Source: Nitrospirales bacterium LBB_01 (lineage in GTDB: Bacteria > Nitrospirota > Thermodesulfovibrionia > Thermodesulfovibrionales > Magnetobacteriaceae). From it: DNA of 64,000 nucleotides. The notes beneath the pieces are model-generated. The model had not been told where the DNA came from. It did not search any database and was given only the letters and a program-made list of their open reading frames with translations. A program made the translations under genes and the position numbers. Within the stretch, counting starts at the first letter, position 1. Each line of letters starts with the position of its first letter. Below are positions 49,719-64,000 of this stretch, one piece after another. The stretch lies in contig CP049016.1 of the NCBI GenBank assembly GCA_004376055.2, positions 2,046,001 through 2,110,000 of the forward strand. Direction: 5' to 3'.

Positions 49719-49744
49719 TAAAATATAAAAAAGAGGTGACTATT

Positions 49745-49987
49745 ATGTGTGCAACATTAAACATATCTGATGATCTCATCAAGACCGTGCAAAAGCTCTC
49801 AGGAGAAAAATCAAAGACAAAAGCAATCACAGTCGCCATGGAGGAGTATGTAAGACACAGGAAGATAAAAGACCTTCTTGCGCTTAAAGGTAAAGTTTCG
49901 TTGGCATTTGACTGGGAAGCACAAGAGGAGAGAGAAATGAAGACTCAAAAAGAAAGAGAGAAACTCCTTGAAAACAGAGGAAGGTAA
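49745..49987 (+). CDS. vapB: VapB-type antitoxin
   Basis: An 80-residue protein with an N-terminal ribbon-helix-helix-like segment (L-N-I-S-D-D-L-I-K-T-V) and K-T-K-A-I-T-V-A-M-E-E-Y-V, the pattern of VapB antitoxins of the DUF2191 kind. The C-terminal half is charged and probably disordered until it binds the toxin. I chose ATG 49745 because AGAGGTG lies 6 bases before it. The end overlaps the toxin gene by 20 bases, as is usual for such pairs. VapB would repress its own promoter. Confidence 0.85.
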   Translation: MCATLNISDDLIKTVQKLSGEKSKTKAITVAMEEYVRHRKIKDLLALKGKVSLAFDWEAQEEREMKTQKEREKLLENRGR

Positions 49988-50354
49988 TGTCCTGATTGAT
50001 ACAAGCGCATGGGTTGAATTTTTCAGGGGAACTTCAAAAACGGCGGTTGCCGTTGCTAATCTTATCGAAGCCGGGAAAGCATTACTTTGCGGCGTTGTTC
50101 GTTATGAACTCATGCAAGGGGCAAAGTCTGCCGTGGAGTCATCGCATCTCTCCGGTGTATTATCGGCTCTCCCATATATAGAGATGACCTCCGATTTATG
50201 GACAAAGGCTGGAAATATATCAGCCATGCTTAGGATTAAGGGGATTACTTTGCCAATGTCCGATATTCTAATAGCTGCAATTGCATTAGAACATAACATA
50301 GAAGTGCTCACTTTGGATACCCATTTTGCAAGCATCGGGACTCAGACGGTATGA
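49968..50354 (+). CDS. vapC: VapC-type PIN-domain toxin ribonuclease
   Basis: A 128-residue PIN-domain protein: L-I-D-T-S-A-W-V-E (Asp11), Y-E-L-M-Q-G (acidic Glu), M-S-D-I-L-I-A-A-I-A and L-D-T-H-F, giving the four acidic residues of the Mg-dependent RNase site. VapC toxins cut tRNA or rRNA and are held in check by VapB. The start is not certain: TTG 49968 gives the full frame, while GAGGAAGG at 49975-49982 points to a start near 49990, where only CTG or ATT is available. Confidence 0.87.
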   Translation: MKTEEGNVLIDTSAWVEFFRGTSKTAVAVANLIEAGKALLCGVVRYELMQGAKSAVESSHLSGVLSALPYIEMTSDLWTKAGNISAMLRIKGITLPMSDILIAAIALEHNIEVLTLDTHFASIGTQTV

Positions 50355-51402: not shown

Positions 51403-52299
51403 ATGCGGGAAAATGTACTAAAGTTGACCAACACAGTGAATATTGATACAGTGGGTGTTATCGGTGCCGGAGTGATGGGTGTCGGTGTAGCCCAAAATGC
51501 CGCCCAGAGTGGGAAAAAGGTTGTTTTAATTGACCTTGACCCTGTGATACTGGAAAAAGCCATAGATAAAATTAGACGTGACCTGCGTTTTCAAAGCATG
51601 TTTAAACCTGCCTATGCTACTGTTTTAGATTCCGCAACGGTTTTAAATAACATTACACCATCCTCAGATTATAATCTTCTGAGCAGTACCGATTACATAA
51701 TAGAAAATGTCACCGAGAAATGGGATATAAAGAAGGAAGTCTATCAGAAAATAGATACTCTGGCAAAAGATAACTGTATTTTTGCAGCCAACACATCGGC
51801 TATTCCCATAACCCGTATTGCCTCCCTTACAAAGAGGCCTGAAAAGGTTATCGGTATTCATTTTATGAACCCAGTGCCGCTTAAGTCTGCGGTTGAGGTA
51901 ATAATGGGCTACCACACTACGGAGGAGACTCTTAATACTACAAAAGACCTCCTGTCCTCTATGGGCAAGGAAAGCATTGTGGTTAATGACTCGCCGGGTT
52001 TTGTCTCAAACCGAGTGCTTATGCTTACCATAAATGAGGCCATATATCTGGTCTATGAAAATGTGGCAAAGCCGGAGGATGTGGATAGGATATTTAAGAC
52101 CTGCTTTGGACACCAGATGGGCCCCCTTGAGACGGCAGATTTAATCGGGCTGGACACTATCCTTTACTCCATTGACGTTCTATATGAGAGCTTTAACGAC
52201 AGCAAGTTTAGACCATGCCCGTTACTTAAAAAAATGGTCGATGCCGGTCTCTACGGCATGAAAAACGGCAAAGGGTTCTACACCTATGACGACTTTTAG
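51403..52299 (+). CDS. FkbK-like 3-hydroxyacyl-CoA dehydrogenase family protein
   Basis: A 298-residue NAD-dependent dehydrogenase with the Rossmann motif V-I-G-A-G-V-M-G-V-G near residue 21, the catalytic His in V-I-G-I-H-F-M-N-P and the C-terminal helical dimer domain with G-P-L-E-T-A-D-L-I-G. By itself it reads as 3-hydroxybutyryl-CoA dehydrogenase. Its neighbours (carrier protein, acyl-CoA dehydrogenase, FkbH-like protein) make it the FkbK member of a hydroxy- or methoxymalonyl-ACP pathway, where it oxidises the glyceryl-ACP hydroxyl. It is the first gene of the set. Confidence 0.9.
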   Translation: MRENVLKLTNTVNIDTVGVIGAGVMGVGVAQNAAQSGKKVVLIDLDPVILEKAIDKIRRDLRFQSMFKPAYATVLDSATVLNNITPSSDYNLLSSTDYIIENVTEKWDIKKEVYQKIDTLAKDNCIFAANTSAIPITRIASLTKRPEKVIGIHFMNPVPLKSAVEVIMGYHTTEETLNTTKDLLSSMGKESIVVNDSPGFVSNRVLMLTINEAIYLVYENVAKPEDVDRIFKTCFGHQMGPLETADLIGLDTILYSIDVLYESFNDSKFRPCPLLKKMVDAGLYGMKNGKGFYTYDDF

Positions 52300-52346
52300 C
52301 GTTATCACTGCATTTAAAATAAACAAACGAGGTAGCGGATATCTGA

Positions 52347-52592
52347 ATGACTCCTGAAGAGATAAAAACAAAAGTCAGAGCCTTCCTTTTAAAATATATT
52401 AAAAAGCCTGATATTAAAGACGATGAAGACTATTTTGCATCTAAACTAATTAATTCCCTCTTTGCCATGCAGCTTGTTATGTTTGTCGAAAAGGAGTTCA
52501 AAATAAAAGTTGAAGACAAAGACCTTGAAATTAAGAATTTTAATTCGATAGACTCAGTTTCAGGCCTTATAACAAGAAAACTTACTTCTTAA
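52347..52592 (+). CDS. FkbJ-like freestanding acyl carrier protein
   Basis: An 81-residue acyl carrier protein. The phosphopantetheine Ser is in L-I-N-S-L-F-A-M-Q-L-V (N-S-L in place of the usual D-S-L), a form I associate with FkbJ-type carriers of glyceryl and hydroxymalonyl units. Helix 4 ends in S-G-L-I. It sits 47 bases after the FkbK-like gene and 27 before the FkbI-like gene. It should carry the three-carbon unit from loading by the FkbH-like protein to delivery to the AT of the megasynthase. Confidence 0.87.
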   Translation: MTPEEIKTKVRAFLLKYIKKPDIKDDEDYFASKLINSLFAMQLVMFVEKEFKIKVEDKDLEIKNFNSIDSVSGLITRKLTS

Positions 52593-52619
52593 AAAGACAA
52601 TTAAACCTCAGAGGTAAAC

Positions 52620-53750
52620 ATGGAGTTAACAAAAGAGCAGGAACAAGCACAGGTGGAATTTAAAGCGTTTGTAAATGAGCATGTTGCGCCATTTGCTGAT
52701 ACATTTGACAGGGAGCAGAAAATACCTGATGAACTGATAGCGCTGATTGCCCAAAATGGTTGGTTTGGATTGATTGTCCCTAAAGAGTATGGCGGCATGG
52801 CGGCGGATATGATAACCTATGGGCTAATGTGTGAGGAGATGGGATGTGGCAGCGCCTCTCTTTTAAGTCTCCTAACCGTACATGGGATGGTTATACAGGC
52901 TATTCTGCGATGGGGTAGCAGCGTTCTTAAGGAGCGATGGTTACGTAAACTTGCCGCAGGGGAGGTTATCGGCGCATTTGCCCTCACTGAGCCAAATATC
53001 GGAAGTGACGCCAGCAGTGTTGAAACCGTTGCAGTTAAGACTGAAACAGGGTTTATATTAACCGGTAAAAAGAAGTGGATTTCTTTTGGTCAAAGAGCTG
53101 ACTTATTTATGATTATCGCTCAGTGCGAGGGCAAACCAACAGCGTTTTTGCTTGAAAAGAGCACGCCGGGTTTTTCTATCGCACAAATTACCGACACGTT
53201 TGGGTTTCGGGCTGCTATGATGGCAGAGCTTACGATGGATAACTGTCTCATTGCAGAGGAAAACATGGTTGGACGAATCGGTTTTGGAGTCACTCATGTA
53301 GCCACCCATGCGCTTGACTATGGCAGATATACGGTCGGTTGGGGTTGTGTGGGGCTTGCTAGGGCATGTCTTGAGGCAAGCCTTAAATATACCGCACAGA
53401 GAGTGCAATTTGGCACATACCTGCGCAAGCACCAGTTGATTCAGCATATGATTACCGACATGATAGCCTCTATCACCGCAGCGCGTCTTTTGTGTTTTAA
53501 TGCGGGGCAATTAAAAGATACCGGAGATCACAGAACTATTATGGAAACCGCAATCGCCAAATACTTTTCATCCACGATGGTTGTAAAGGCAGCACTTGAC
53601 GCTGTGCAAATTCACGGAGCTAACGGCATAAGCTGTGACTATCCAGTGGCAAGATACCTTAGAGACGCTAAAGTTATGGAGATAATTGAGGGAAGCTCAC
53701 AGATGCAGCAGATAATTATAGCAAGGTATGGGTATCAGGAATATTTATAG
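52620..53750 (+). CDS. FkbI-like acyl-CoA (acyl-ACP) dehydrogenase
   Basis: A 376-residue flavoprotein with F-A-L-T-E-P-N-I-G-S-D-A-S, K-K-W-I-S-F-G, R-V-Q-F-G-T-Y-L-R-K-H-Q and Q-I-H-G-A-N-G-I-S, and with E-G-S-S-Q-M-Q near the end. Length is that of normal acyl-CoA dehydrogenases. In the FK520 and zwittermicin pathways such enzymes help oxidise the ACP-bound three-carbon unit to hydroxymalonyl. Its place between the FkbJ-like and FkbH-like genes gives it that role here; a degradative function is much less likely. Confidence 0.9.
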   Translation: MELTKEQEQAQVEFKAFVNEHVAPFADTFDREQKIPDELIALIAQNGWFGLIVPKEYGGMAADMITYGLMCEEMGCGSASLLSLLTVHGMVIQAILRWGSSVLKERWLRKLAAGEVIGAFALTEPNIGSDASSVETVAVKTETGFILTGKKKWISFGQRADLFMIIAQCEGKPTAFLLEKSTPGFSIAQITDTFGFRAAMMAELTMDNCLIAEENMVGRIGFGVTHVATHALDYGRYTVGWGCVGLARACLEASLKYTAQRVQFGTYLRKHQLIQHMITDMIASITAARLLCFNAGQLKDTGDHRTIMETAIAKYFSSTMVVKAALDAVQIHGANGISCDYPVARYLRDAKVMEIIEGSSQMQQIIIARYGYQEYL

Positions 53751-53764
53751 TCTTTGAAAAAAGA

Positions 53765-53800
53765 TTAATCCGCAGATGACGCAGATGAACGCAAATGACA
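53765..53800. repeat. short Cys/Arg-coding-type dispersed repeat (CGCAGATGACGCAGATGAACGC)
   Basis: TAATCCGCAGATGACGCAGA and the following TGAACGCAAATGAC form a short internally repeated motif of GCAGATGA units. Very similar sequences are scattered between genes in many environmental bacteria, by general recall. Only this copy is seen in the window. It lies between the FkbI-like and FkbH-like genes. Confidence 0.4.
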
Positions 53801-53859
53801 AAATTATAAATCTGGGAAAATATGCTGGGAAAAGACATTTCTCTTGAAAAGGAAAATAT

Positions 53860-54903
53860 GTGACAGAAGTCAAAAAAACAAAATGTCTCGTATGGGACTT
53901 GGATAATACACTGTGGAACGGCACGCTCCTTGAGGGCGACCGTATAACGTTAAATGAAAATGCCGTACATGCCATCAAAACCCTTGACAGCCGTGGAATA
54001 CTTCAATCAATTGCAAGCAAAAACGACTATAACACAGCTATGTCAAAGCTCTGTGAGTTTGGTTTAGAGGAGTTTTTCCTGTATCCTCAGATAAATTGGG
54101 GCACTAAATCGGAGTCTGTCAAAAAAATCGCAGAACTGATCAATATAGGCGTTGATACGCTTGCCTTCATAGACGATAATCAATTTGAGCTTGACGAGGT
54201 GACATTTTCATTGCCGGAGGTTCTGTGCATACACGCAGATTCTCTTGACAGCGTTTTGGGCATGGAGAGTATGACCCCTGACTTTATAACAGAAGACTCT
54301 AAAAACCGCCGTCTAATGTATATGGCTGACATGGAGCGAAACAAGGCTGAGGAGTCTTACGAGGGCCCAAAAGAGGAGTTTCTGAGCACACTTGATATGG
54401 TCTTTGATATTTCTCTTGCTACCACAGAAGACCTTAAAAGAGCTGAGGAGCTTACCGTTAGGACCAACCAGCTTAACACCACAGGTTACACGTATAGTTA
54501 TGACGAGCTGGATGAGTTTATTAGATCAAACGGACATCTGCTTCTTATTGCCTCACTTAGTGACCGGTACGGCACTTACGGAAAAATTGGTCTTGTGCTG
54601 ATTGAAGTCACTGACTCGGCATGGATTATAAAGCTGCTTCTGATGTCGTGCCGAGTGATGAGCCGCGGTGTAGGAGCGATAGTGATAAACTATCTGAGAA
54701 ATGAAGCGCGCAGGCATGGAGTAAAACTGCTTGCCGAGATGATACAAAACGACAAAAACCGGATGATGTATGTTACTTACAAGTTTTCCGGATTTAGCGA
54801 CATTAGCAGAGACGGGCAGTTGGTAATCATGGAAAACACATCGCTTGATGACATTCCTCCGTATCCTGAGTATGTTAAATTGAGATTTCCACAATCGTTG
54901 TAA
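53860..54903 (+). CDS. FkbH-like glyceryl-ACP synthase (HAD superfamily)
   Basis: A 347-residue protein with the HAD nucleophile motif V-W-D-L-D-N-T-L-W-N-G at residues 10-20, F-I-D-D-N-Q-F-E-L-D near 105, and a C-terminal acetyltransferase-like half (L-S-D-R-Y-G-T-Y-G-K-I-G-L-V). FkbH enzymes take 1,3-bisphosphoglycerate, remove a phosphate and load glyceryl onto the dedicated ACP, the first step to hydroxymalonyl-ACP. The start is GTG, 7 bases after AAGGA. It is followed by MITE-like copy 4 and then the megasynthase. Confidence 0.92.
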   Translation: MTEVKKTKCLVWDLDNTLWNGTLLEGDRITLNENAVHAIKTLDSRGILQSIASKNDYNTAMSKLCEFGLEEFFLYPQINWGTKSESVKKIAELINIGVDTLAFIDDNQFELDEVTFSLPEVLCIHADSLDSVLGMESMTPDFITEDSKNRRLMYMADMERNKAEESYEGPKEEFLSTLDMVFDISLATTEDLKRAEELTVRTNQLNTTGYTYSYDELDEFIRSNGHLLLIASLSDRYGTYGKIGLVLIEVTDSAWIIKLLLMSCRVMSRGVGAIVINYLRNEARRHGVKLLAEMIQNDKNRMMYVTYKFSGFSDISRDGQLVIMENTSLDDIPPYPEYVKLRFPQSL

Positions 54904-54911
54904 CAGGAGAA

Positions 54912-55137
54912 ATGCTTACTAAGTTAACTAAGGAAGAGGGTTTAATGGTTTTTAAGGAGGTAGGTTTTATAATTATTAGAATTAGGAAAAGGACTGGATT
55001 CCCGCTCGGAGGCGGGAATGACAGAGGTGGGAGTTTTCTTTTTCTGTCATTCATCTTTTTCCTGTCATTCATCTTTTTCTTGTCATTCCTGCGAAGGCAG
55101 GAATCCAGTTTTTTATCGGATTTAATTACAAAGGCAT
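54912..55137. repeat. MITE-like dispersed element, copy 4
   Basis: A 226 bp copy beginning ATGCTTACTAAGTTAACTAA, 8 bases after the FkbH-like stop, and ending near CGGATTTAATTACAAAGGCA. The inner arms GGACTGGATTCCCGC and its complement are kept. Between them, a unit of about 20 bases (CTTTTTCCTGTCATTCAT) occurs two to three times (about 55030-55090). It fills the gap before the megasynthase gene and holds no gene. Confidence 0.72.
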
Positions 55138-55161
55138 TGAAGGAGATATAAAGGAAATAAA

Positions 55162-58100
55162 ATGAGTACCGATAGCAAAGACACGCTAAAAAATCTTTAC
55201 AAGGCATATAAGGCTCTGCAAATAAAGACGGCTAAGTTTGAAGAGCCAATAGCTGTAACCGGCATCGGATGCCGGTTTCCGGGTGGGGCTGATACTCCTG
55301 AAAAATTCTGGCAGATTTTGGAAAAAGGACAGGATGTAACGAGTGAGGTGCCAAAAGACAGGTGGTCTGTTGATACATTCTATGACCCTGACCCTGACGC
55401 TGTCGGTAAGTCTTACACAAAACGCGGGGGATTTCTGAGTGAACCGGTTAGCGGCTTTGATAACGGTTTTTTTCAGATATCTCCCGATGAGGCCAAAAGT
55501 ATGGACCCGCAGCAGCGGATGCTTCTTGAGGTGACCCGTGAGGCGCTGGAAAATTCTGCTACTGACCCAAACAGCCTTGCTGGAACTCTTACCGGAGTTT
55601 TCATTGGAATCGTTAATAATGACTATATGTCGGCTCATCTACGCTGTGGAGACCTTTCAAAAATAGACTCATACTCCATAACAGGAATTGCGGCAAGCAC
55701 TGCCACTGGGCGTATCTCCTACACTTACGGTCTTGAGGGGCCGAGTGTGGCGATAGACACGGCATGTTCGTCCTCGCTTGCTGCAATACACTTGGCTTGT
55801 CAAAGTTTAAAAACAGGGGAGTCTGATATGGCACTTGCCGGAGGGGTGCATCTTAACCTTACGCCTGAGGGGTTTATCGGTTTTTGCAAGATTAAAATTC
55901 TTTCCCCTGACGGGCGCTGCCGGAGTTTTGATGCACAGGCTGACGGGATGTCTAAGGGTGAAGGGTGCGGAATAGTCGTCCTAAAACGGCTCTCTGACGC
56001 CATATCTCATGGCGACAGGGTAATAGCCGTCATAAAGGGCAGCGCTATGAACCAAGACGGCCGCAGCAATGGGCTTACGGCTCCGAACGGTTTAGCGCAG
56101 GAAAAGGTTATGCGCAAGGCTCTTGAAAAAGCTGCAATAGAACCCTCCGATGTGGGATATATTGAGGCTCATGGCTCGGCTACTTCATTAGGCGACACTG
56201 TTGAGATACAATCCATTACCAATGTATATAGAAACGGACGAGGTAACGCACTATCTGTCGGAACGGTTAAGGCAAACATCGGGCATCTTGAGGGCGCTGC
56301 CGGCGTTGCAGGGTTTATAAAGACAGCGCTTATGCTTGAAAAAGGCATCATACCGCCACTGGCTAATTTTGAAAAACCTAACCCGCTTATTCAATGGGAC
56401 AGCGTTAAGATAGATACCTCAGCAGTCAAATGGGATAATGGCGCTCGCATTGCTGCGGTTAGCTCATACGGCTTTAGCGGCACTAATGTTCACTTAATAG
56501 TTGGCGAACCCTCTGTAATAGACAATAGAACATCTGGAGAAACGCCTGGTTACCAATTGCTTAACATTTCCGCTAAAACCAAAGAGGCATTGAGAGCACT
56601 TGCTAAGAGACACCACGATTATTTAGTTGAAGACAGCGATGTCTCCTTAGCCGATATATGCTACACTGCCGCCATCGGGCGGGCACAATTACCCTGCCGC
56701 CTTAGCGTAACAGGGAAAACCAAAGGCGAAATGTGTGAAAAACTGGAAAGCAGTCTAAACTCTGCCGACTACACGGATGGCTGTGTAAGCGGTGAGATAT
56801 CGCATTTCCCTAAAAAGATAGTGTTTATGTTTGCTGGACAAGGCTCTCAATACCGCGATATGGGAAAAGACCTCTACCAAAGCTTGGAGGTATTTCGCAA
56901 TGCAATGGACGCCTGTGACGCTATAGCAAAACCAATAACAGGGAAATCAATTATAGAAATCATATATGGCAATGAGGACGCTGACCTTATTAATGAAACA
57001 CTCTATACTCAGCCTGCCATTTTCTCGGTTGAGTATGCTCTTGCCATGCTTTGGCTTTCGTGGGGTGTAAAACCATCTGCCGTGATGGGACACAGCATAG
57101 GGCAGTACGTTGCCGCATGTGTAGCAGGGGTGTTTTCTCTGACTGATGCTGTCACACTTGTGTGCGAAAGAGGGCGTCTCATACAGAGTTTAACAAAAGA
57201 CGGCAGTATGGCTGTGGTTCTTACAGATGAGAAAACCGTTAACTCTCTAATAGAAAAGTATTCGGAACGAGTCTCGTTAGCAGCAGTAAACGGCCCTGAA
57301 AACGTTGTTATCTCCGGCGACAAGGAGTCCGTGTCGGAGGTAATCGCTCAGTTTATAGAAATGGACATACCGGCAAGAGAGATTAAGATATCGCACGCAA
57401 TTCACAGTGTTCTTATGGAGCCTATACTTGGCGACTTCCTTGAAGCGGCTAAAAAGGTGTCATACTCAGCGCCCAAAATCCCGCTTGTGTCAAACGCTGA
57501 CGGCAGGTTTGCTGCGGATGAGACAGCAACGCCTGAGTTTTGGGTCAAACATCTTAGAGGATGTGTCCGGTTTTATGACTCGGTTGTCAATTTGGACAGG
57601 TGGGGATTTAACGTGTTTATAGAGGTCGGAGCTGCGACAACTCTTATGAGTCTTGGAATCCAATGTCTGCCTGATAATGAATCGCTTTGGGTGTATTCGC
57701 TTGGCATTAACAACTCCATGTTTAACATGCGTCCGATGCGTTACGAATCCACAAACGATTGGCAGCAGATGTTAAGGGGGCTTTCAGAGCTTTTTGTTGC
57801 CGGAGTTGAAATTGACTGGAAAGGGGTTATCGGCTCTCACTTAACAGGACGGAAAAAGGTTGCCCTGCCCACATATCCATATGAGCGTAAACATCTTTGG
57901 ATAGCTCCCGTGTATGAATACCAACAGCTAAAAGCAGAGCTTCCATCTGTTGACGTAAGCGCTCAGAACGAGCAATCCGAACCGGCGCCTCAACGTGAGA
58001 ATTTTCAAAATGAGATTTTAAATTTAATAAGAAAAATCTCAGGCATAGATATATCAATTCACGATTATGATAAAAACCTGTTCACGCTTGGACTTGTATC

Positions 58101-61100
58101 GCTTATGATAACCCGGATAAGGGATTCTATCAGACGCACTTACGGCGTCGATATAAAGATGTCCTCATTTTATAAAGAAACAAGCACTGTTAATAAACTT
58201 CTTGATTATATTAAAAAACGTCTGCCGCAAGATGCTCCAAGTGTTACACCTCTGTCTGACAATAGCGGGACAAGGAGCATAACTGAGATACCTGTAAAAC
58301 AGACCTTTACCGTGTATCGTAAGATTATGGAAAGGGAGGCGCTGAGTCTTGACAAGATAAAACAAGCCCATGTAAATAAGCTAATAAAACGCTACACGGA
58401 AAAAACCGCAGCCTCACGAGCGCACACCCAAAAGTATCGCAGCGTGTTTGCCAATATTAGAAACATTTCCGGGTTTCGTATGGAATGGAAAGACATGATT
58501 TATCAGATAGTGGCAAAGCGCGCCGAAGGCTCAAAAATATGGGACATGGACGGCAGACGGTACTTAGACATTTCTATGGGATTTGGCGTTTATCTGTTTG
58601 GTCACAATCCGCCTTTTATAAGACCAGAACTGGAAAAAGAGTTTCTTAACGGGTTTCCAATTGGGCCGATGTCGCAATTAGCCGCAGAGAATGCCCAGTT
58701 AATATGTGAGATGGCAAATGTTGAGCGCGTGGCTTTTTTTAATACCGGAACTGAGGCCGTTATGGCGGCAGTCCGAATTGCACGCACCGTTACAGGGAGG
58801 GATAAACTTGTCGTGTTTTCGGGTGCCTATCACGGTCACAGCGACGGAGTGCTGGCTACAGGGTATTTTGAGGGAGATATTTTGAGAACTGTTCCGCTTT
58901 CTCCCGGAACCCCACAGGGAATGGTCAACGATGTTTATGTTTTAAATTATGATGAGCCGGCATCTTTAGAGTTTATCAAAAAACACGGCAAAGAGATAGC
59001 CGCCGTTATGGTAGAGCCTGTGCAGAGCCGGAGACCGGACTTACAGCCCGCTCAATTTCTTAAGGCGCTGAGGGAGTTGACAGAAGACATTGGCAGCGCT
59101 TTGATATTTGATGAGATGATAACCGGATTTAGAACACACCCTGGCGGCGCTCAGGCATGGTTTGGAATTAAAGCCGACATTGTGACATACGGCAAGGTAA
59201 TAGGAGGCGGGCTTCCTATTGGCGTTGTTGCAGGAAAGGCTCAGTATCTTGATGCTGTTGACGGCGGCTTCTGGTCGTTTGATGACGGCTCCTATCCACA
59301 GAGAGAAAACACACTGATAGCGGGCACATTTAACCATCATCCGCTTGCAATGGCAGGAGCAAGGGCGGTTATGCAGCATCTTAAAAACATTGGACCCACT
59401 CTTCAGAGCGAACTAAATCAACGCACCGATAGCCTTTCTAAACGCATAAACGAATACCTTACCGGTGAGGGAATCTCCACTATCCAGATGGTCAACTTTG
59501 CCTCCTTGTTCAGATTTGTGCTTAAAGGGGACGATGAGCTGCTTAACTATCATCTTCTTGACCGAGGAATATATGTGTGGGAGGGCAGGGCGTGTTTCCT
59601 TTCAACAGCCCACACAGACGATGATATTAAATTCTTTGAGGACGCCGTAAGAGACAGCATTGCTGAAATGAAAGAGGGCGGGTTTTTTCAGACTGACAGC
59701 GTTAAACACAAGGCTCACGTTGTTAAACCGACCACAGTACCAGTATCCAGCGCTCAGAGGCGGCTCTATGCCTTGAGCCAATTTGAAGGGGGGCAGCTAA
59801 GTTACCACGTGCCGGTTGTGTTTTTTATTGACGGCGCACTTGATATAAAACGATTTGGCAGCATCTTTAATGAGCTTATTAATAGACACGAAAGCCTGCG
59901 GAGCAGTTTTGTGTTAGAAAACGGAGAGATTCGCAGGCTTGCAGCTGAGAGCGTAGATTTTGACGTTCAATACGCAGCCATAAAAGAGGATGCGACAGAG
60001 GGATTTGTAAGGGATTTTATAAGGGATTTTGAACTATCCAAAGCGCCGTTAATAAGGGTTTGTTTAGCCAATATTGAAGACGGGAAAAACCGCAGTTTAT
60101 GTATAATTGACGCTCATCACATTGTCTTTGACGGAATCTCAGCCGACATACTGGTTGGCGAGCTTATTGAGTTATATCGGAAAGAGAAGCTCCAGCCGCT
60201 TAAAAAACAGTATCGGGATTATACGGCATGGGAAGCTGATTATACCAAATCTCACGAGTTTCAGTTACACGAGAAATTCTGGCTTGATATGCTTTCAGAT
60301 AACACTCCGGTACTGAACCTTCCTTATGATTTTCAGCGGCCAAAGATACGCTCCTTTAATGGAAAGCGGCTTTTTGTAACGATAGATGAAACTAAAACCA
60401 CCGCTCTTAAAGAATATTCCGCAAAGTGCGGCGTATCGCTCTACGCTCTGCTTTTTGCCGCACACAGCGTTCTGCTTCATAAACTAACCGGACAGAGTGA
60501 TTTAATCATAGGCACAAACTTTGACGGCAGAAACCACGAGGATCTGACAGACGTAATCGGAATGTTTGTCAGTACTCTTGCATTAAGAACAAGACCCGAA
60601 GTAGAAAAGCATTTTAACGCATTTGTCAGCGAGATTCAGGAAACTGTGCTTGAGGCGCTGGACTGCCAAAGTTTCCCATTTGAAATTCTTGTAAATAAAC
60701 TGCATCTTAAGCGCGACGTCAGTAAAAACCCACTGTTTGATACCATGTTTGTCTATGAAAAAATTGATACTAAAACATTTGTATCCGGGGATTTAACATT
60801 TAGAAAATTTGATTATTCCATTGATAAATCCATGTTTGACCTAACTCACGAATTTTTAGAGCTTGAAGGCACACTAAACATGTCTATGGAGTTTAATACG
60901 GCTTTATTTAAGGTTGAAACGATAGAAAGATTTTTAAATTTTTATGAAAACATCTTAAATTCTATTTTAACAAAACCAGACATTGCCATCCGTGACATTG
61001 GCATTCTGTCAGAAGAGGAATCAAGGCGGCTGACAGTGGATTTCAACAGCACTGCCAAAGACTTTCCGCTTCACTTGACTATAGCGGATTTATTTGAAAG

Positions 61101-64000
61101 ACAGGCGGCAAAAACTCCTGAAAATATTGCAATTAAATTTAACGATATAACATATACATATCGCACGCTTAATGAGAAGTCTAACCGGGTTGCTAATTTT
61201 TTAAAAACACATATAACGCTTAATGATGAGGAACTGATTGCCATAATGGCAGACCGCTCAGAGTGGACTGTTGTCGCAATGCTTGGAATACTCAAGGCAG
61301 GGGCAGCGTTTCTTCCTATAGACCCTGCATACCCAGAGGACAGAATCTCCTACATGATAGAGGACAGCGGCTGCCGAATTCTGCTTACTCATTTAGAAAA
61401 TATTGAAAACGATAAACTTGAAGTCATAAATATTAAAAACATTATCTGTGATGATTCAAAAAATCCTGTAAGAACGATAACGCCAAAGAGCCTTGCCTAT
61501 GTCATATACACATCTGGCACTACAGGGCGGCCAAAGGGCGTTATGATAGAGCACGAAACCCTCGTAAATATGGCGCTTGCACACATTGACTTTTTTGAAA
61601 TCACAGACTCTGACAGAATGCTTCAGTTTTCTTCAATGTCGTCGGATACGTCGCTCTTTGAGATATTTCTTTCCCTATTTGCAGGGGCTGCTGTTGTGCT
61701 TATAGACAAAGAAACAATTTTTAACACGGCAAATTTTATAAAATACATTGAGGAAATGGGCGTCACATTTTTAGCGCTCCCTCCGGTCTATCTAAATAGT
61801 TTAAACAAAGCACAACTTGGCACAGTGCGCGCCATAGCCTCCTGCGGCGCTCCGGCAGTTGTCAGTGACGCTCTGTTTTATGGCAAAAATAAGGTGTTTT
61901 TTAACTCATACGGACCAACTGAAACCACAGTAGCCGTAACTTATTACAGACTGGATATGGAACGCTCCTATGATGCCCATATTCCAATAGGCCCCCCCAT
62001 TTCAAACACCTGTATATACATAGTTGACGAATCGCTTAACCTGGTTCCAATTGGCATAGAGGGGGAGCTTTGCATAGGCGGTAAGTGCCTTGCCCGCGGA
62101 TACAAGAATAAGCCTGAGACGACGGCTGAGAAGTTCATAATGATTGCTGCCGCCGGAGACCAAAGGCTTTATAGAAGCGGCGATATGGGTCGGTGGCTTT
62201 CTGACGGTAACATTGAGTGCACGGGAAGAAAAGACGACCAGCTAAAGGTTAGAGGCTACAGGGTAGAGCTAAGCGAGGTGGAATACGCTGTCTCCTCACA
62301 CCATATGGTAAAAGCCGTTGTGGTAATAGCGCGGAAATTCTTAAGCGAAACCCCTGAGCTTATCGCCTACATAATAAAGCAAGGGACACTTACAGCAGCT
62401 GAGTTGAGGGCATATATGGGTAAACGCCTGCCCGATTACATGATTCCAGCATATATTGTGTTTGTTGATAAATTCCCGCTTTCCCCCAACAACAAAGTTG
62501 ATAAGAAAGCGCTTCCCGACCCGATTAAAACTGACGAAAATGGCAATTTAACGGAACCGTCAACTGAAACTGAACGAGTTCTCGTCAGAGCACTAATGAC
62601 AATACTTGACAGAAAAACAGTTGGTGTAAATGATGACTTTTTTGCTCTTGGCGGCGATTCCATAAAGGCGATACAACTGATATCCGCCCTTAATGCCGAG
62701 AGGCTTTCCATTTCGGTGCGGGATGTTTTTGAAAACCCTGTGCTAACCGATATGGCAAGGAAAATTACCGGAGCTACAGCGTTGTCGGAACAGGGGATTG
62801 TCACCGGCACAGTACCATTGACTGCAATTCAAAGGTGGTTTTTTGACAGTAACCTTACATCAAACCATTACACACAAGGCATTTTGCTTAACTGCTCCAG
62901 CAGAATTAACAAGGAGACACTTAATGAGGCATTTACAAAACTCATGGAGCATCATGACACACTCAGAATGGAATACACTTTTTCTGCTGACGGCAGAGTA
63001 ATTCAGGAATGTTCTCCAGATATAAACGCCATCACTGTTGAGACAGTCGTTGTTGACAATGACTCCGATATTGCAGAGCTTTGTGCCGCAGTGCCTCCAA
63101 CAGTTGACCTTAAAAAAGGGCAATTACTTAAGGCCGTCATATATAAGGGGCAGGTGAGCGATTATCTTTTGATAGTCATACACCATTTAATAGTGGACGG
63201 CGTTTCGTGGCGAATCCTTATAGAGGATATCTCACAGGCATATAAGTCAATCACTGAAAGAACAGCTGTCACATTCCCACCTAAGACAGCTTCTTATAAG
63301 GCATGGGCGGAAACAATTACTGAATATGCCGCATTACCACAATTGCTAAAAGAGGCCGAGTACTGGAACTCAGTTTGCAAAACCGTTGCAGAGCCTATAA
63401 AGACCGATTATGATAACGATGGAAATTTTGAAACGCTCAATTTTACGCTTAACTCAGACATTACAACGCTAATTTTAACGAATAGCACGGAAACGCGGGA
63501 TATTCTTCTTTCGGCGCTTCTCTTGGCTGTCTATGAAACTTATGGAGTAAAGACCATAGCGGTTGAGCTTGAAGGACACGGCAGAGAGGAGATAATTGAA
63601 GGGATTAACGTGTCTAGAACCGTTGGCTGGTTTACATCTGTGTATCCTGTAGTGTTAAACATATCGGAGAGCGGCAATCTTGATGACACTATCAAGCACG
63701 TAAAGGAAACACTGCGAAAAGTACCTCAAAATGGCATTGGTTATGGGATATTGAAATATATTTCAGGGGAACACGGCTTGAGTTTAAACCAATCCCCTCA
63801 GATTGCCTTTAACTATCTTGGTTCATTTGACAGCTTACAACAGGGAGGAGTTTTTAAATTTTCCGATATTGTGGTTGAAAACACCATAAGCCATAACTTC
63901 AGAGACGTCAACGTTCTGTCTGTAGAGGGATTTGTTGTAAATAACATGTTTCACGGCTCAATATCCTATAACACTGGTGTCTATACCGCTGAGACAGTCT
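55162..64000 (+). CDS. hybrid PKS-NRPS megasynthase KS-AT-ACP-aminotransferase-C-A-PCP-E, 3' end outside the window
   Basis: One frame of 2946 codons with no stop runs to the window edge. KS about residues 28-455: C202 in D-T-A-C-S-S-S, H337 in E-A-H-G-S, H375 in G-H-L-E-G. AT 550-850: S645 in G-H-S-I-G-Q; the specificity site reads H745-A-I-H rather than the malonyl H-A-F-H or methylmalonyl Y-A-S-H. No KR, DH or ER. ACP about 950-1015: S980. Class III aminotransferase 1075-1510: K1345 in Y-G-K-V-I-G-G-G. C domain 1530-1945: H1652-H1653-x-x-x-D1657-G. A domain 1970-2440: Y-T-S-G-T-T-G-R-P-K-G-V. PCP: S2500 in L-G-G-D-S. E domain from about 2550: H2674-H-x-x-x-D2679, F-N-Y-L-G. It should build an alpha-hydroxy-beta-amino acyl unit, add an amino acid and epimerise it. 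ATG follows an AGGAG/AAGGA region. No loading domain, so the starter comes from elsewhere. Confidence 0.93.
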   Translation, partial: MSTDSKDTLKNLYKAYKALQIKTAKFEEPIAVTGIGCRFPGGADTPEKFWQILEKGQDVTSEVPKDRWSVDTFYDPDPDAVGKSYTKRGGFLSEPVSGFDNGFFQISPDEAKSMDPQQRMLLEVTREALENSATDPNSLAGTLTGVFIGIVNNDYMSAHLRCGDLSKIDSYSITGIAASTATGRISYTYGLEGPSVAIDTACSSSLAAIHLACQSLKTGESDMALAGGVHLNLTPEGFIGFCKIKILSPDGRCRSFDAQADGMSKGEGCGIVVLKRLSDAISHGDRVIAVIKGSAMNQDGRSNGLTAPNGLAQEKVMRKALEKAAIEPSDVGYIEAHGSATSLGDTVEIQSITNVYRNGRGNALSVGTVKANIGHLEGAAGVAGFIKTALMLEKGIIPPLANFEKPNPLIQWDSVKIDTSAVKWDNGARIAAVSSYGFSGTNVHLIVGEPSVIDNRTSGETPGYQLLNISAKTKEALRALAKRHHDYLVEDSDVSLADICYTAAIGRAQLPCRLSVTGKTKGEMCEKLESSLNSADYTDGCVSGEISHFPKKIVFMFAGQGSQYRDMGKDLYQSLEVFRNAMDACDAIAKPITGKSIIEIIYGNEDADLINETLYTQPAIFSVEYALAMLWLSWGVKPSAVMGHSIGQYVAACVAGVFSLTDAVTLVCERGRLIQSLTKDGSMAVVLTDEKTVNSLIEKYSERVSLAAVNGPENVVISGDKESVSEVIAQFIEMDIPAREIKISHAIHSVLMEPILGDFLEAAKKVSYSAPKIPLVSNADGRFAADETATPEFWVKHLRGCVRFYDSVVNLDRWGFNVFIEVGAATTLMSLGIQCLPDNESLWVYSLGINNSMFNMRPMRYESTNDWQQMLRGLSELFVAGVEIDWKGVIGSHLTGRKKVALPTYPYERKHLWIAPVYEYQQLKAELPSVDVSAQNEQSEPAPQRENFQNEILNLIRKISGIDISIHDYDKNLFTLGLVSLMITRIRDSIRRTYGVDIKMSSFYKETSTVNKLLDYIKKRLPQDAPSVTPLSDNSGTRSITEIPVKQTFTVYRKIMEREALSLDKIKQAHVNKLIKRYTEKTAASRAHTQKYRSVFANIRNISGFRMEWKDMIYQIVAKRAEGSKIWDMDGRRYLDISMGFGVYLFGHNPPFIRPELEKEFLNGFPIGPMSQLAAENAQLICEMANVERVAFFNTGTEAVMAAVRIARTVTGRDKLVVFSGAYHGHSDGVLATGYFEGDILRTVPLSPGTPQGMVNDVYVLNYDEPASLEFIKKHGKEIAAVMVEPVQSRRPDLQPAQFLKALRELTEDIGSALIFDEMITGFRTHPGGAQAWFGIKADIVTYGKVIGGGLPIGVVAGKAQYLDAVDGGFWSFDDGSYPQRENTLIAGTFNHHPLAMAGARAVMQHLKNIGPTLQSELNQRTDSLSKRINEYLTGEGISTIQMVNFASLFRFVLKGDDELLNYHLLDRGIYVWEGRACFLSTAHTDDDIKFFEDAVRDSIAEMKEGGFFQTDSVKHKAHVVKPTTVPVSSAQRRLYALSQFEGGQLSYHVPVVFFIDGALDIKRFGSIFNELINRHESLRSSFVLENGEIRRLAAESVDFDVQYAAIKEDATEGFVRDFIRDFELSKAPLIRVCLANIEDGKNRSLCIIDAHHIVFDGISADILVGELIELYRKEKLQPLKKQYRDYTAWEADYTKSHEFQLHEKFWLDMLSDNTPVLNLPYDFQRPKIRSFNGKRLFVTIDETKTTALKEYSAKCGVSLYALLFAAHSVLLHKLTGQSDLIIGTNFDGRNHEDLTDVIGMFVSTLALRTRPEVEKHFNAFVSEIQETVLEALDCQSFPFEILVNKLHLKRDVSKNPLFDTMFVYEKIDTKTFVSGDLTFRKFDYSIDKSMFDLTHEFLELEGTLNMSMEFNTALFKVETIERFLNFYENILNSILTKPDIAIRDIGILSEEESRRLTVDFNSTAKDFPLHLTIADLFERQAAKTPENIAIKFNDITYTYRTLNEKSNRVANFLKTHITLNDEELIAIMADRSEWTVVAMLGILKAGAAFLPIDPAYPEDRISYMIEDSGCRILLTHLENIENDKLEVINIKNIICDDSKNPVRTITPKSLAYVIYTSGTTGRPKGVMIEHETLVNMALAHIDFFEITDSDRMLQFSSMSSDTSLFEIFLSLFAGAAVVLIDKETIFNTANFIKYIEEMGVTFLALPPVYLNSLNKAQLGTVRAIASCGAPAVVSDALFYGKNKVFFNSYGPTETTVAVTYYRLDMERSYDAHIPIGPPISNTCIYIVDESLNLVPIGIEGELCIGGKCLARGYKNKPETTAEKFIMIAAAGDQRLYRSGDMGRWLSDGNIECTGRKDDQLKVRGYRVELSEVEYAVSSHHMVKAVVVIARKFLSETPELIAYIIKQGTLTAAELRAYMGKRLPDYMIPAYIVFVDKFPLSPNNKVDKKALPDPIKTDENGNLTEPSTETERVLVRALMTILDRKTVGVNDDFFALGGDSIKAIQLISALNAERLSISVRDVFENPVLTDMARKITGATALSEQGIVTGTVPLTAIQRWFFDSNLTSNHYTQGILLNCSSRINKETLNEAFTKLMEHHDTLRMEYTFSADGRVIQECSPDINAITVETVVVDNDSDIAELCAAVPPTVDLKKGQLLKAVIYKGQVSDYLLIVIHHLIVDGVSWRILIEDISQAYKSITERTAVTFPPKTASYKAWAETITEYAALPQLLKEAEYWNSVCKTVAEPIKTDYDNDGNFETLNFTLNSDITTLILTNSTETRDILLSALLLAVYETYGVKTIAVELEGHGREEIIEGINVSRTVGWFTSVYPVVLNISESGNLDDTIKHVKETLRKVPQNGIGYGILKYISGEHGLSLNQSPQIAFNYLGSFDSLQQGGVFKFSDIVVENTISHNFRDVNVLSVEGFVVNNMFHGSISYNTGVYTAETV

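What the first reader, a model, noticed from the sequence alone, without database searches (positions are those of the whole stretch)
51403..64000. Hydroxymalonyl-ACP gene set (fkbK/J/I/H-like) feeding a PKS-NRPS megasynthase
Four adjacent co-oriented genes match the set that makes hydroxymalonyl-ACP in FK520 and zwittermicin pathways, and the next gene is a large PKS-NRPS with a dedicated AT. No O-methyltransferase (FkbG) lies in the window, so the extender is likely to stay hydroxymalonyl unless fkbG is farther on. I recall no described product from this lineage with this set. It is the left part of a cluster; the remaining modules lie to the right.
Basis: partly seen in the sequence, partly recalled or inferred. 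Interest (0 to 1): 0.85.

Follow-up and report, generated by a model that had tools for sequence, protein, structure and literature searches.

The report
Hydroxymalonyl-ACP genes beside β-amino PKS-NRPS
An uncultured magnetotactic bacterium (phylum Nitrospirota) carries a complete peptide-polyketide gene cluster with the four genes that make a rare hydroxylated building block, but the enzyme domain expected to pick up that block lacks the usual signature, so how the block enters the product is an open, testable question.

Summary
Four co-oriented genes at 51403-54903 are a true fkbK-J-I-H cassette (FkbH up to 63% identical to cyanobacterial cassettes with the same gene order; not β-oxidation enzymes). 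The next gene is a PKS-NRPS, 55162-65484, 3440 aa: KS-AT-ACP-AMT-C-A-PCP-E-C. It continues past the window into two more NRPSs and a thioesterase. The cluster is conserved in three species of one magnetotactic Nitrospirota genus (Ca. Magnetomonas clade); a fourth species lacks the cassette and the PKS. No fkbG was found.

All eight PKS-linked cyanobacterial and actinobacterial cassette loci inspected carry an AT with GYSxG, the signature of ZmaA (proven hydroxymalonyl-ACP AT). The window AT is GHSIG...HAIH and groups with malonyl-type ATs; no GYSxG AT was found in the genome. HAIH is itself odd: Ile at this selectivity position recurs in my set only in a discrete AT beside another GYS-less cassette.

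Best reading: the cassette feeds this assembly line, most likely as extender through an independently adapted AT; with the aminotransferase this would give a 3-amino-2-hydroxyacyl unit without an oxygenase. Rival: an FkbJ-borne starter, since there is no loading module. Product unknown.

The parts
51403..52299 (+). fkbK-like 3-hydroxyacyl-ACP dehydrogenase, 298 aa
   Evidence: PF02737/PF00725; 58-64% identical to the FkbK of eight cyanobacterial and actinobacterial cassettes; no other homologue in the genome
52347..52592 (+). fkbJ-like discrete acyl carrier protein, 81 aa
   Evidence: PF00550 21.1 bits, just above the 20.8 cut-off; Ser37 invariant in 14 cassette ACPs
52620..53750 (+). fkbI-like acyl-ACP dehydrogenase, 376 aa
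   Evidence: Acyl-CoA_dh domains; cassette clade against fatty-acid ACADs 100/100
53860..54903 (+). fkbH-like glyceryl transferase/phosphatase, 347 aa
   Evidence: TIGR01686 272.6 bits; D13, D15 and C264 invariant in 14 sequences
55162..64000 (+). PKS-NRPS, 3440 aa in full (ends at 65484, beyond the window): KS-AT-ACP-AMT-C-A-PCP-E-C
   Evidence: orthologues of 82-84% identity in G003 and G002
55243..56373 (+). KS domain with Cys and both His motifs; first domain, no loading module before it
56821..57672 (+). AT domain: GHSIG at 57088, HAIH at 57394; not GYSxG
58492..59670 (+). Class III aminotransferase domain (AMT) embedded between ACP and C; no monooxygenase domain follows it
   Evidence: PF00202; Lys motif YGKVIGG at 59188 and direct AMT-C linker
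59731..62760 (+). NRPS module 1: C-A-PCP
62794..64000 (+). Epimerisation domain (to about 64086); a C domain follows at about 64129-65451 beyond the window

Best explanation
The four genes make hydroxymalonyl-ACP: FkbH loads a glyceryl group from 1,3-bisphosphoglycerate onto FkbJ, and FkbK and FkbI oxidise it (known for related pathways such as zwittermicin; inferred here from homology). The unit feeds the adjoining assembly line KS-AT-ACP-AMT-C-A-PCP-E-C | A-PCP-C-A-PCP-E | C-A-PCP-C-A-PCP-TE, most likely as the extender of the single PKS module, through an AT adapted independently of the ZmaA type (HAIH). The embedded aminotransferase would then give a 3-amino-2-hydroxyacyl residue without an oxygenase, joined to five amino acids and released by the thioesterase. 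Shown: gene content, domain order, conservation, AT type. Inferred: chemistry, AT substrate, residue identities. Unknown: starter and product.
For: Cassette identity and order. Cassette and PKS-NRPS adjacent and conserved at 82-92% in three species of the genus, both absent in a fourth. Only one PKS AT lies in the cluster. HAIH, with Ile in place of Phe at the selectivity position, is shared by all four family orthologues and absent from six in-cis ATs of other beta-amino modules (HAFH 5, RAFH 1). The only other AT with Ile there is PPIH of the discrete AT directly after fkbH in Alkalihalophilus, another cassette without a GYSxG AT in the stretch examined. AMT present and no monooxygenase domain between AMT and C.
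Against: The AT is GHSIG and not GYSxG, which eight of eight PKS-linked cyanobacterial and actinobacterial cassette loci and ZmaA have (PMC4207774). It groups with CurL and the genome's other GHS ATs (93/90), and holding it with the GYS ATs is rejected. The HAIH argument was made after seeing the data. In G009 the cassette has another possible customer, a GYSLG AT. The extender model leaves the starter unexplained.
Confidence: 0.45

Rival explanations
1. The FkbJ-borne C3 unit (glyceryl, hydroxymalonyl or its decarboxylated form) is the starter: the KS takes it from FkbJ, the AT supplies malonyl-CoA, and AMT makes a polar beta-amino acid at the start of the peptide.
For: The AT is malonyl-like in GHSIG, in the NETLYTQ motif and in the tree. 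The KS is the first domain with no loading module. FkbJ is the only discrete ACP seen in the cluster. No FAAL was found in the complete genome.
Against: No precedent found here for hydroxymalonyl as starter (one search lists extender or tetronate uses); a free malonyl-type acid on a KS would be expected to decarboxylate (general knowledge). HAIH is unexplained. KS loading by FkbJ could not be tested.
Confidence: 0.25
2. The cassette serves mainly another pathway in the cell (a second PKS locus, or a use outside polyketides), and its position is inherited.
For: G009 keeps the cassette among chemotaxis genes, away from its PKS-NRPS orthologue, and has a GYSLG AT elsewhere. The window genome has other PKS loci with unusual HGFH ATs.
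Against: In three species the cassette stays immediately before the PKS-NRPS while both outer flanks differ. The other PKS ATs of the window genome are not GYSxG either.
Confidence: 0.15
3. The four genes are fatty-acid-degradation enzymes and the resemblance to fkbKJIH is superficial.
For: Best PDB hits of FkbI are ordinary acyl-CoA dehydrogenases; Pfam names are generic.
Against: FkbI groups with cassette proteins at 100/100; a true FkbH and a discrete ACP are present; no other homologue of FkbK in the genome.
Confidence: 0.03

Closest known systems
Zwittermicin hydroxymalonyl-ACP pathway and ZmaA AT (PMC4207774)
   Same: Glyceryl-to-hydroxymalonyl ACP gene set beside a PKS-NRPS; no O-methyltransferase needed
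   Different: ZmaA AT is GYSFG...GAAH; here GHSIG...HAIH, in a different AT clade
Cyanobacterial plasmid cassettes (Gloeocapsopsis, Chroococcidiopsis, Nostoc)
   Same: Same gene order K-J-I-H, FkbH 58-63% identical, PKS/NRPS context where annotated
   Different: They carry a GYSxG AT beside the cassette; no GYSxG AT was found in the window genome
FK520 methoxymalonyl-ACP genes (fkbG-K)
   Same: fkbH, I, J and K homologues are present
   Different: fkbG was not found in the cluster; FkbI is not especially close to FK520 FkbI (1r2j far down the list)
Puwainaphycin PuwE and iturin-type beta-amino acyl PKS-NRPS (PMC4219810)
   Same: PKS module, aminotransferase, then NRPS module in one protein
   Different: No FAAL in the genome and no monooxygenase domain after AMT; a hydroxymalonyl cassette lies next door instead

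Membership tests
Hydroxymalonyl-ACP cassette (FkbKJIH / Zma type) | FkbH domain protein with HAD aspartates and conserved Cys | tested here: met
   TIGR01686 above cut-off; D13, D15, C264 invariant
Hydroxymalonyl-ACP cassette (FkbKJIH / Zma type) | Discrete ACP, 3-hydroxyacyl dehydrogenase and acyl dehydrogenase of the cassette lineage, adjacent in the order K-J-I-H | tested here: met
Hydroxymalonyl-ACP cassette (FkbKJIH / Zma type) | FkbJ is converted to hydroxymalonyl-FkbJ | not testable with these tools
   needs in vitro assay
ZmaA-type hydroxymalonyl-ACP AT | GYSxG at the active-site Ser and placement with ZmaA | tested here: not met
   GHSIG; tree and AU test
ZmaA-type hydroxymalonyl-ACP AT | Hydrophobic residues at the RXR carrier-recognition motif | tested here: inconclusive
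   PAR here; the motif does not separate groups in my set
Methoxymalonyl-ACP pathway | fkbG O-methyltransferase | tested here: not met
   none among cluster proteins scanned
Iturin/puwainaphycin-type beta-amino acyl PKS-NRPS | KS-AT-ACP-AMT followed by C-A-PCP in one protein | tested here: met
Iturin/puwainaphycin-type beta-amino acyl PKS-NRPS | Fatty acyl-AMP ligase that loads the chain | tested here: not met
   none in the cluster; no FAAL match in G000, though G002, G003 and G009 have one elsewhere

The most novel reading that the evidence does not exclude
The PKS module uses hydroxymalonyl-ACP through an AT that evolved outside the ZmaA-type clade (Phe to Ile in HAFH) and, with the embedded aminotransferase, makes a 3-amino-2-hydroxyacyl residue, the motif of puwainaphycins, from a pre-hydroxylated extender without an oxygenase.
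Probability: 0.42. Interest if true: 0.65.

Novelty: new variant of a known kind. Interest (0 to 1): 0.48.

Why it matters
Cassettes of this type are known, and in my set hydroxymalonyl-ACP use goes with a GYSxG AT. A cassette kept beside a PKS whose AT lacks that signature tests how far AT motifs predict ACP-bound extenders, and gives a concrete AT pair (HAIH here, PPIH in Alkalihalophilus) for a carrier-specificity assay. If the extender reading is right, it is an oxygen-independent route to 3-amino-2-hydroxy acids. PMC8262917 calls sesbanimide R, from Magnetospirillum, the first natural product isolated from a magnetotactic bacterium; I found no described product from magnetotactic Nitrospirota in the library searched.

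Tried and rejected
1) Hydroxymalonamyl starter made by the cluster AsnB homologue (as OxyD makes malonamyl): dropped as leading idea, because 44-53% identical AsnBs in Streptomyces and Kitasatospora (two of the three loci read) sit with an amino-acid racemase and an A-PCP whose pattern (FDAxLRD...NLYGxSETT) matches NRPS domain A2 here, without the cassette in the stretches examined.

2) Beta-oxidation origin: rejected.

3) Co-distribution of cassette and AMT-PKS as proof of a link: weakened when G009 turned out to have a GYSLG AT elsewhere and cassette and PKS on different contigs.

4) RXR motif as a test of ACP-bound substrate: does not separate groups in my set.

The viral-contig scan with FkbH found nothing. 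The genome-contig scan gave only the nDJH6bin1 relative plus two distant FkbH domains.

6) Adenylation codes were read by eye from motifs, without a predictor, so residue names are tentative.

Full report
Observation. Pfam and NCBIfam name them 3-hydroxyacyl dehydrogenase, ACP, acyl-CoA dehydrogenase, FkbH (TIGR01686, 272.6 bits against a cut-off of 146.65) and a PKS-NRPS. The window is 2046001-2110000 of a single 3.27 Mb contig. The PKS-NRPS ends at 65484 in window numbering, and the cluster runs on to about 93.1 kb.

Organism. The nearest named relative is Nitrospirae MAG nDJH6bin1 (L021, FkbH 88%); its contig has the same length (63409 bases) as G003:C155. PMC9376291 places nDJH6bin1 in one cluster with Ca. 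Magnetomonas plexicatena LBB01, whose circular chromosome it calls the first complete genome of a magnetotactic Nitrospirota. I infer that the window is from LBB01 or a close relative; this was not tested.

Cassette. FkbH matches cyanobacterial and streptomycete plasmid cassettes at 50-63%, where K-J-I-H lie in the same order beside PKS or NRPS genes. D13, D15 and C264 of FkbH and Ser37 of FkbJ are invariant in 14 sequences. FkbI falls with the cassette proteins, split from five solved acyl-CoA dehydrogenases and the genome's own second one at 100/100. FkbI's best PDB hits are ordinary acyl-CoA dehydrogenases, with FkbI 1r2j far down the list, so a structure-database search alone would mislead.

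Cluster anatomy. The order follows from domain complementarity: KS-AT-ACP-AMT-C-A1-PCP-E-C | A2-PCP-C-A3-PCP-E | C-A4-PCP-C-A5-PCP-TE, since the first protein ends in a C domain and the second begins with A-PCP. The KS is thus the first domain and has no loading module. The motifs checked in the first protein are intact. Reading the adenylation pockets by eye, A3 and A5 resemble the GrsA Phe code and A4 the Gly code (codes recalled, not looked up); A1 and A2 are unassigned. Further genes conserved in the genus encode an outer-membrane-like protein, an AsnB homologue, an Asp/Glu racemase, a DUF697 protein, an AlaX-like protein, a radical SAM protein, a 228-aa protein without family, a protein kinase and a beta-lactamase-fold protein.

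Conservation. [quoted passage not shown] G002 was read only to part of the last NRPS). The DNA methylase and 298-aa protein (65570-67413) and the toxin-antitoxin-like pair (70555-71337) have no match in either, so they look like insertions in the window genome. The genes left of the cassette differ between the three. G001, same genus, has no cassette and only a FabD-like AT. In 60 genomes of the order including the window's own, cassette-level FkbH and the ACP-AMT PKS occur in the same four. These are not independent, and the fourth, G009, has the cassette, PKS-NRPS, NRPS2 with the outer-membrane-like protein, and AsnB on four different contigs, plus a GYSLG AT in a 6526-aa megasynthase that could be the cassette's customer there.

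The AT. PMC4207774 reports GYSFG...GAAH for ZmaA, shown to use hydroxymalonyl-ACP, and GYSLG for ZmaF (aminomalonyl-ACP), against GHS in the other ATs it tabulates. In my set all eight PKS-linked cassette loci from cyanobacteria and actinomycetes carry a GYSxG AT near the cassette. The S. californicus locus (FkbI 35%, FkbH 42%) is divergent and showed no AT in the stretch examined. The window AT is GHSIG, and no GYSxG AT turned up in G000, G002 or G003. In the AT tree it joins CurL and the genome's other GHS ATs (93/90), while ZmaA and the GYS ATs plus four cyanobacterial GHS ATs form another group (100/100). Holding the window ATs together with the GYS ATs is rejected (p-AU 1.6e-5); with the cyanobacterial GHS ATs added to that group it is not (p 0.14).

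Counter-evidence. The window AT reads HAIH where malonyl ATs read HAFH. All four family orthologues share this; six in-cis ATs from other beta-amino modules read HAFH (5) or RAFH (1). Across all ATs aligned, Ile at this position recurs only in PPIH of the discrete AT directly after fkbH in Alkalihalophilus, a cassette locus with no GYSxG AT in the 31 kb examined. This is suggestive, but I looked for it after the fact. G341, a more distant Nitrospirota genome with a cassette, also showed no GYSxG AT; its cassette abuts a radical-SAM/NRPS gene and the contig ends just before fkbK.

What it makes. If the AT takes hydroxymalonyl, the AMT gives a 3-amino-2-hydroxyacyl residue. The puwainaphycin pathway and the tychonamide-like ones are proposed to reach that motif with an aminotransferase plus a monooxygenase (PMC4219810, PMC13252402); no such domain lies between AMT and C here. 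If the AT takes malonyl, the FkbJ-borne unit would have to be the starter or serve another enzyme. No FAAL was found in the window genome, so a ligase-loaded fatty acid is unlikely in this species; an acyl-ACP from fatty-acid synthesis remains possible.

Verdict. A real cassette and a complete cluster, conserved in a genus; the way the hydroxymalonyl unit enters is the open point. I rate extender use through a non-ZmaA AT at 0.45, starter use at 0.25 and another customer at 0.15.

Noticed in passing
G009:C99:56056-59798 (L029): In G009 the fkbK-J-I-H cassette lies among chemotaxis and signalling genes, away from any PKS on that stretch, while its PKS-NRPS orthologue is on contig C13.
   Followed up: partly
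L004:15196-19154 (window numbering 79196-83157): A tightly packed run of AlaX-like, radical SAM, 228-aa family-less and Ser/Thr kinase genes is conserved inside the cluster in three species; role unknown, perhaps self-protection or tailoring.
   Followed up: no
L004:1570-3410 and L004:6555-7337: A DNA methylase plus 298-aa protein (restriction-modification-like) and a toxin-antitoxin-like pair sit inside the cluster only in the window genome.
   Followed up: partly
G000:C1:1155001-1195000 (L073, L074) and 3145001-3165000 (L075): Further PKS genes in the genome; two of their ATs read HGFH in place of HAFH, and a DUF697 protein 40% identical to the one in this cluster precedes one locus.
   Followed up: partly
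G341:C47 (L107, L109): A distant Nitrospirota genome has the cassette next to a single protein with B12-binding, radical SAM, C, A, PCP and thioesterase domains, followed by many glycosyltransferases.
   Followed up: partly
L125:15001-21693 and L127:15001-19408: AsnB, amino-acid racemase and an A-PCP with the pattern FDAxLRD...NLYGPSETT recur together in Streptomyces and Kitasatospora, as in this cluster; possibly a conserved supply unit for an Asn-like residue.
   Followed up: partly
window 49736-50354: A small VapB/VapC-like pair lies just left of the cluster.
   Followed up: no
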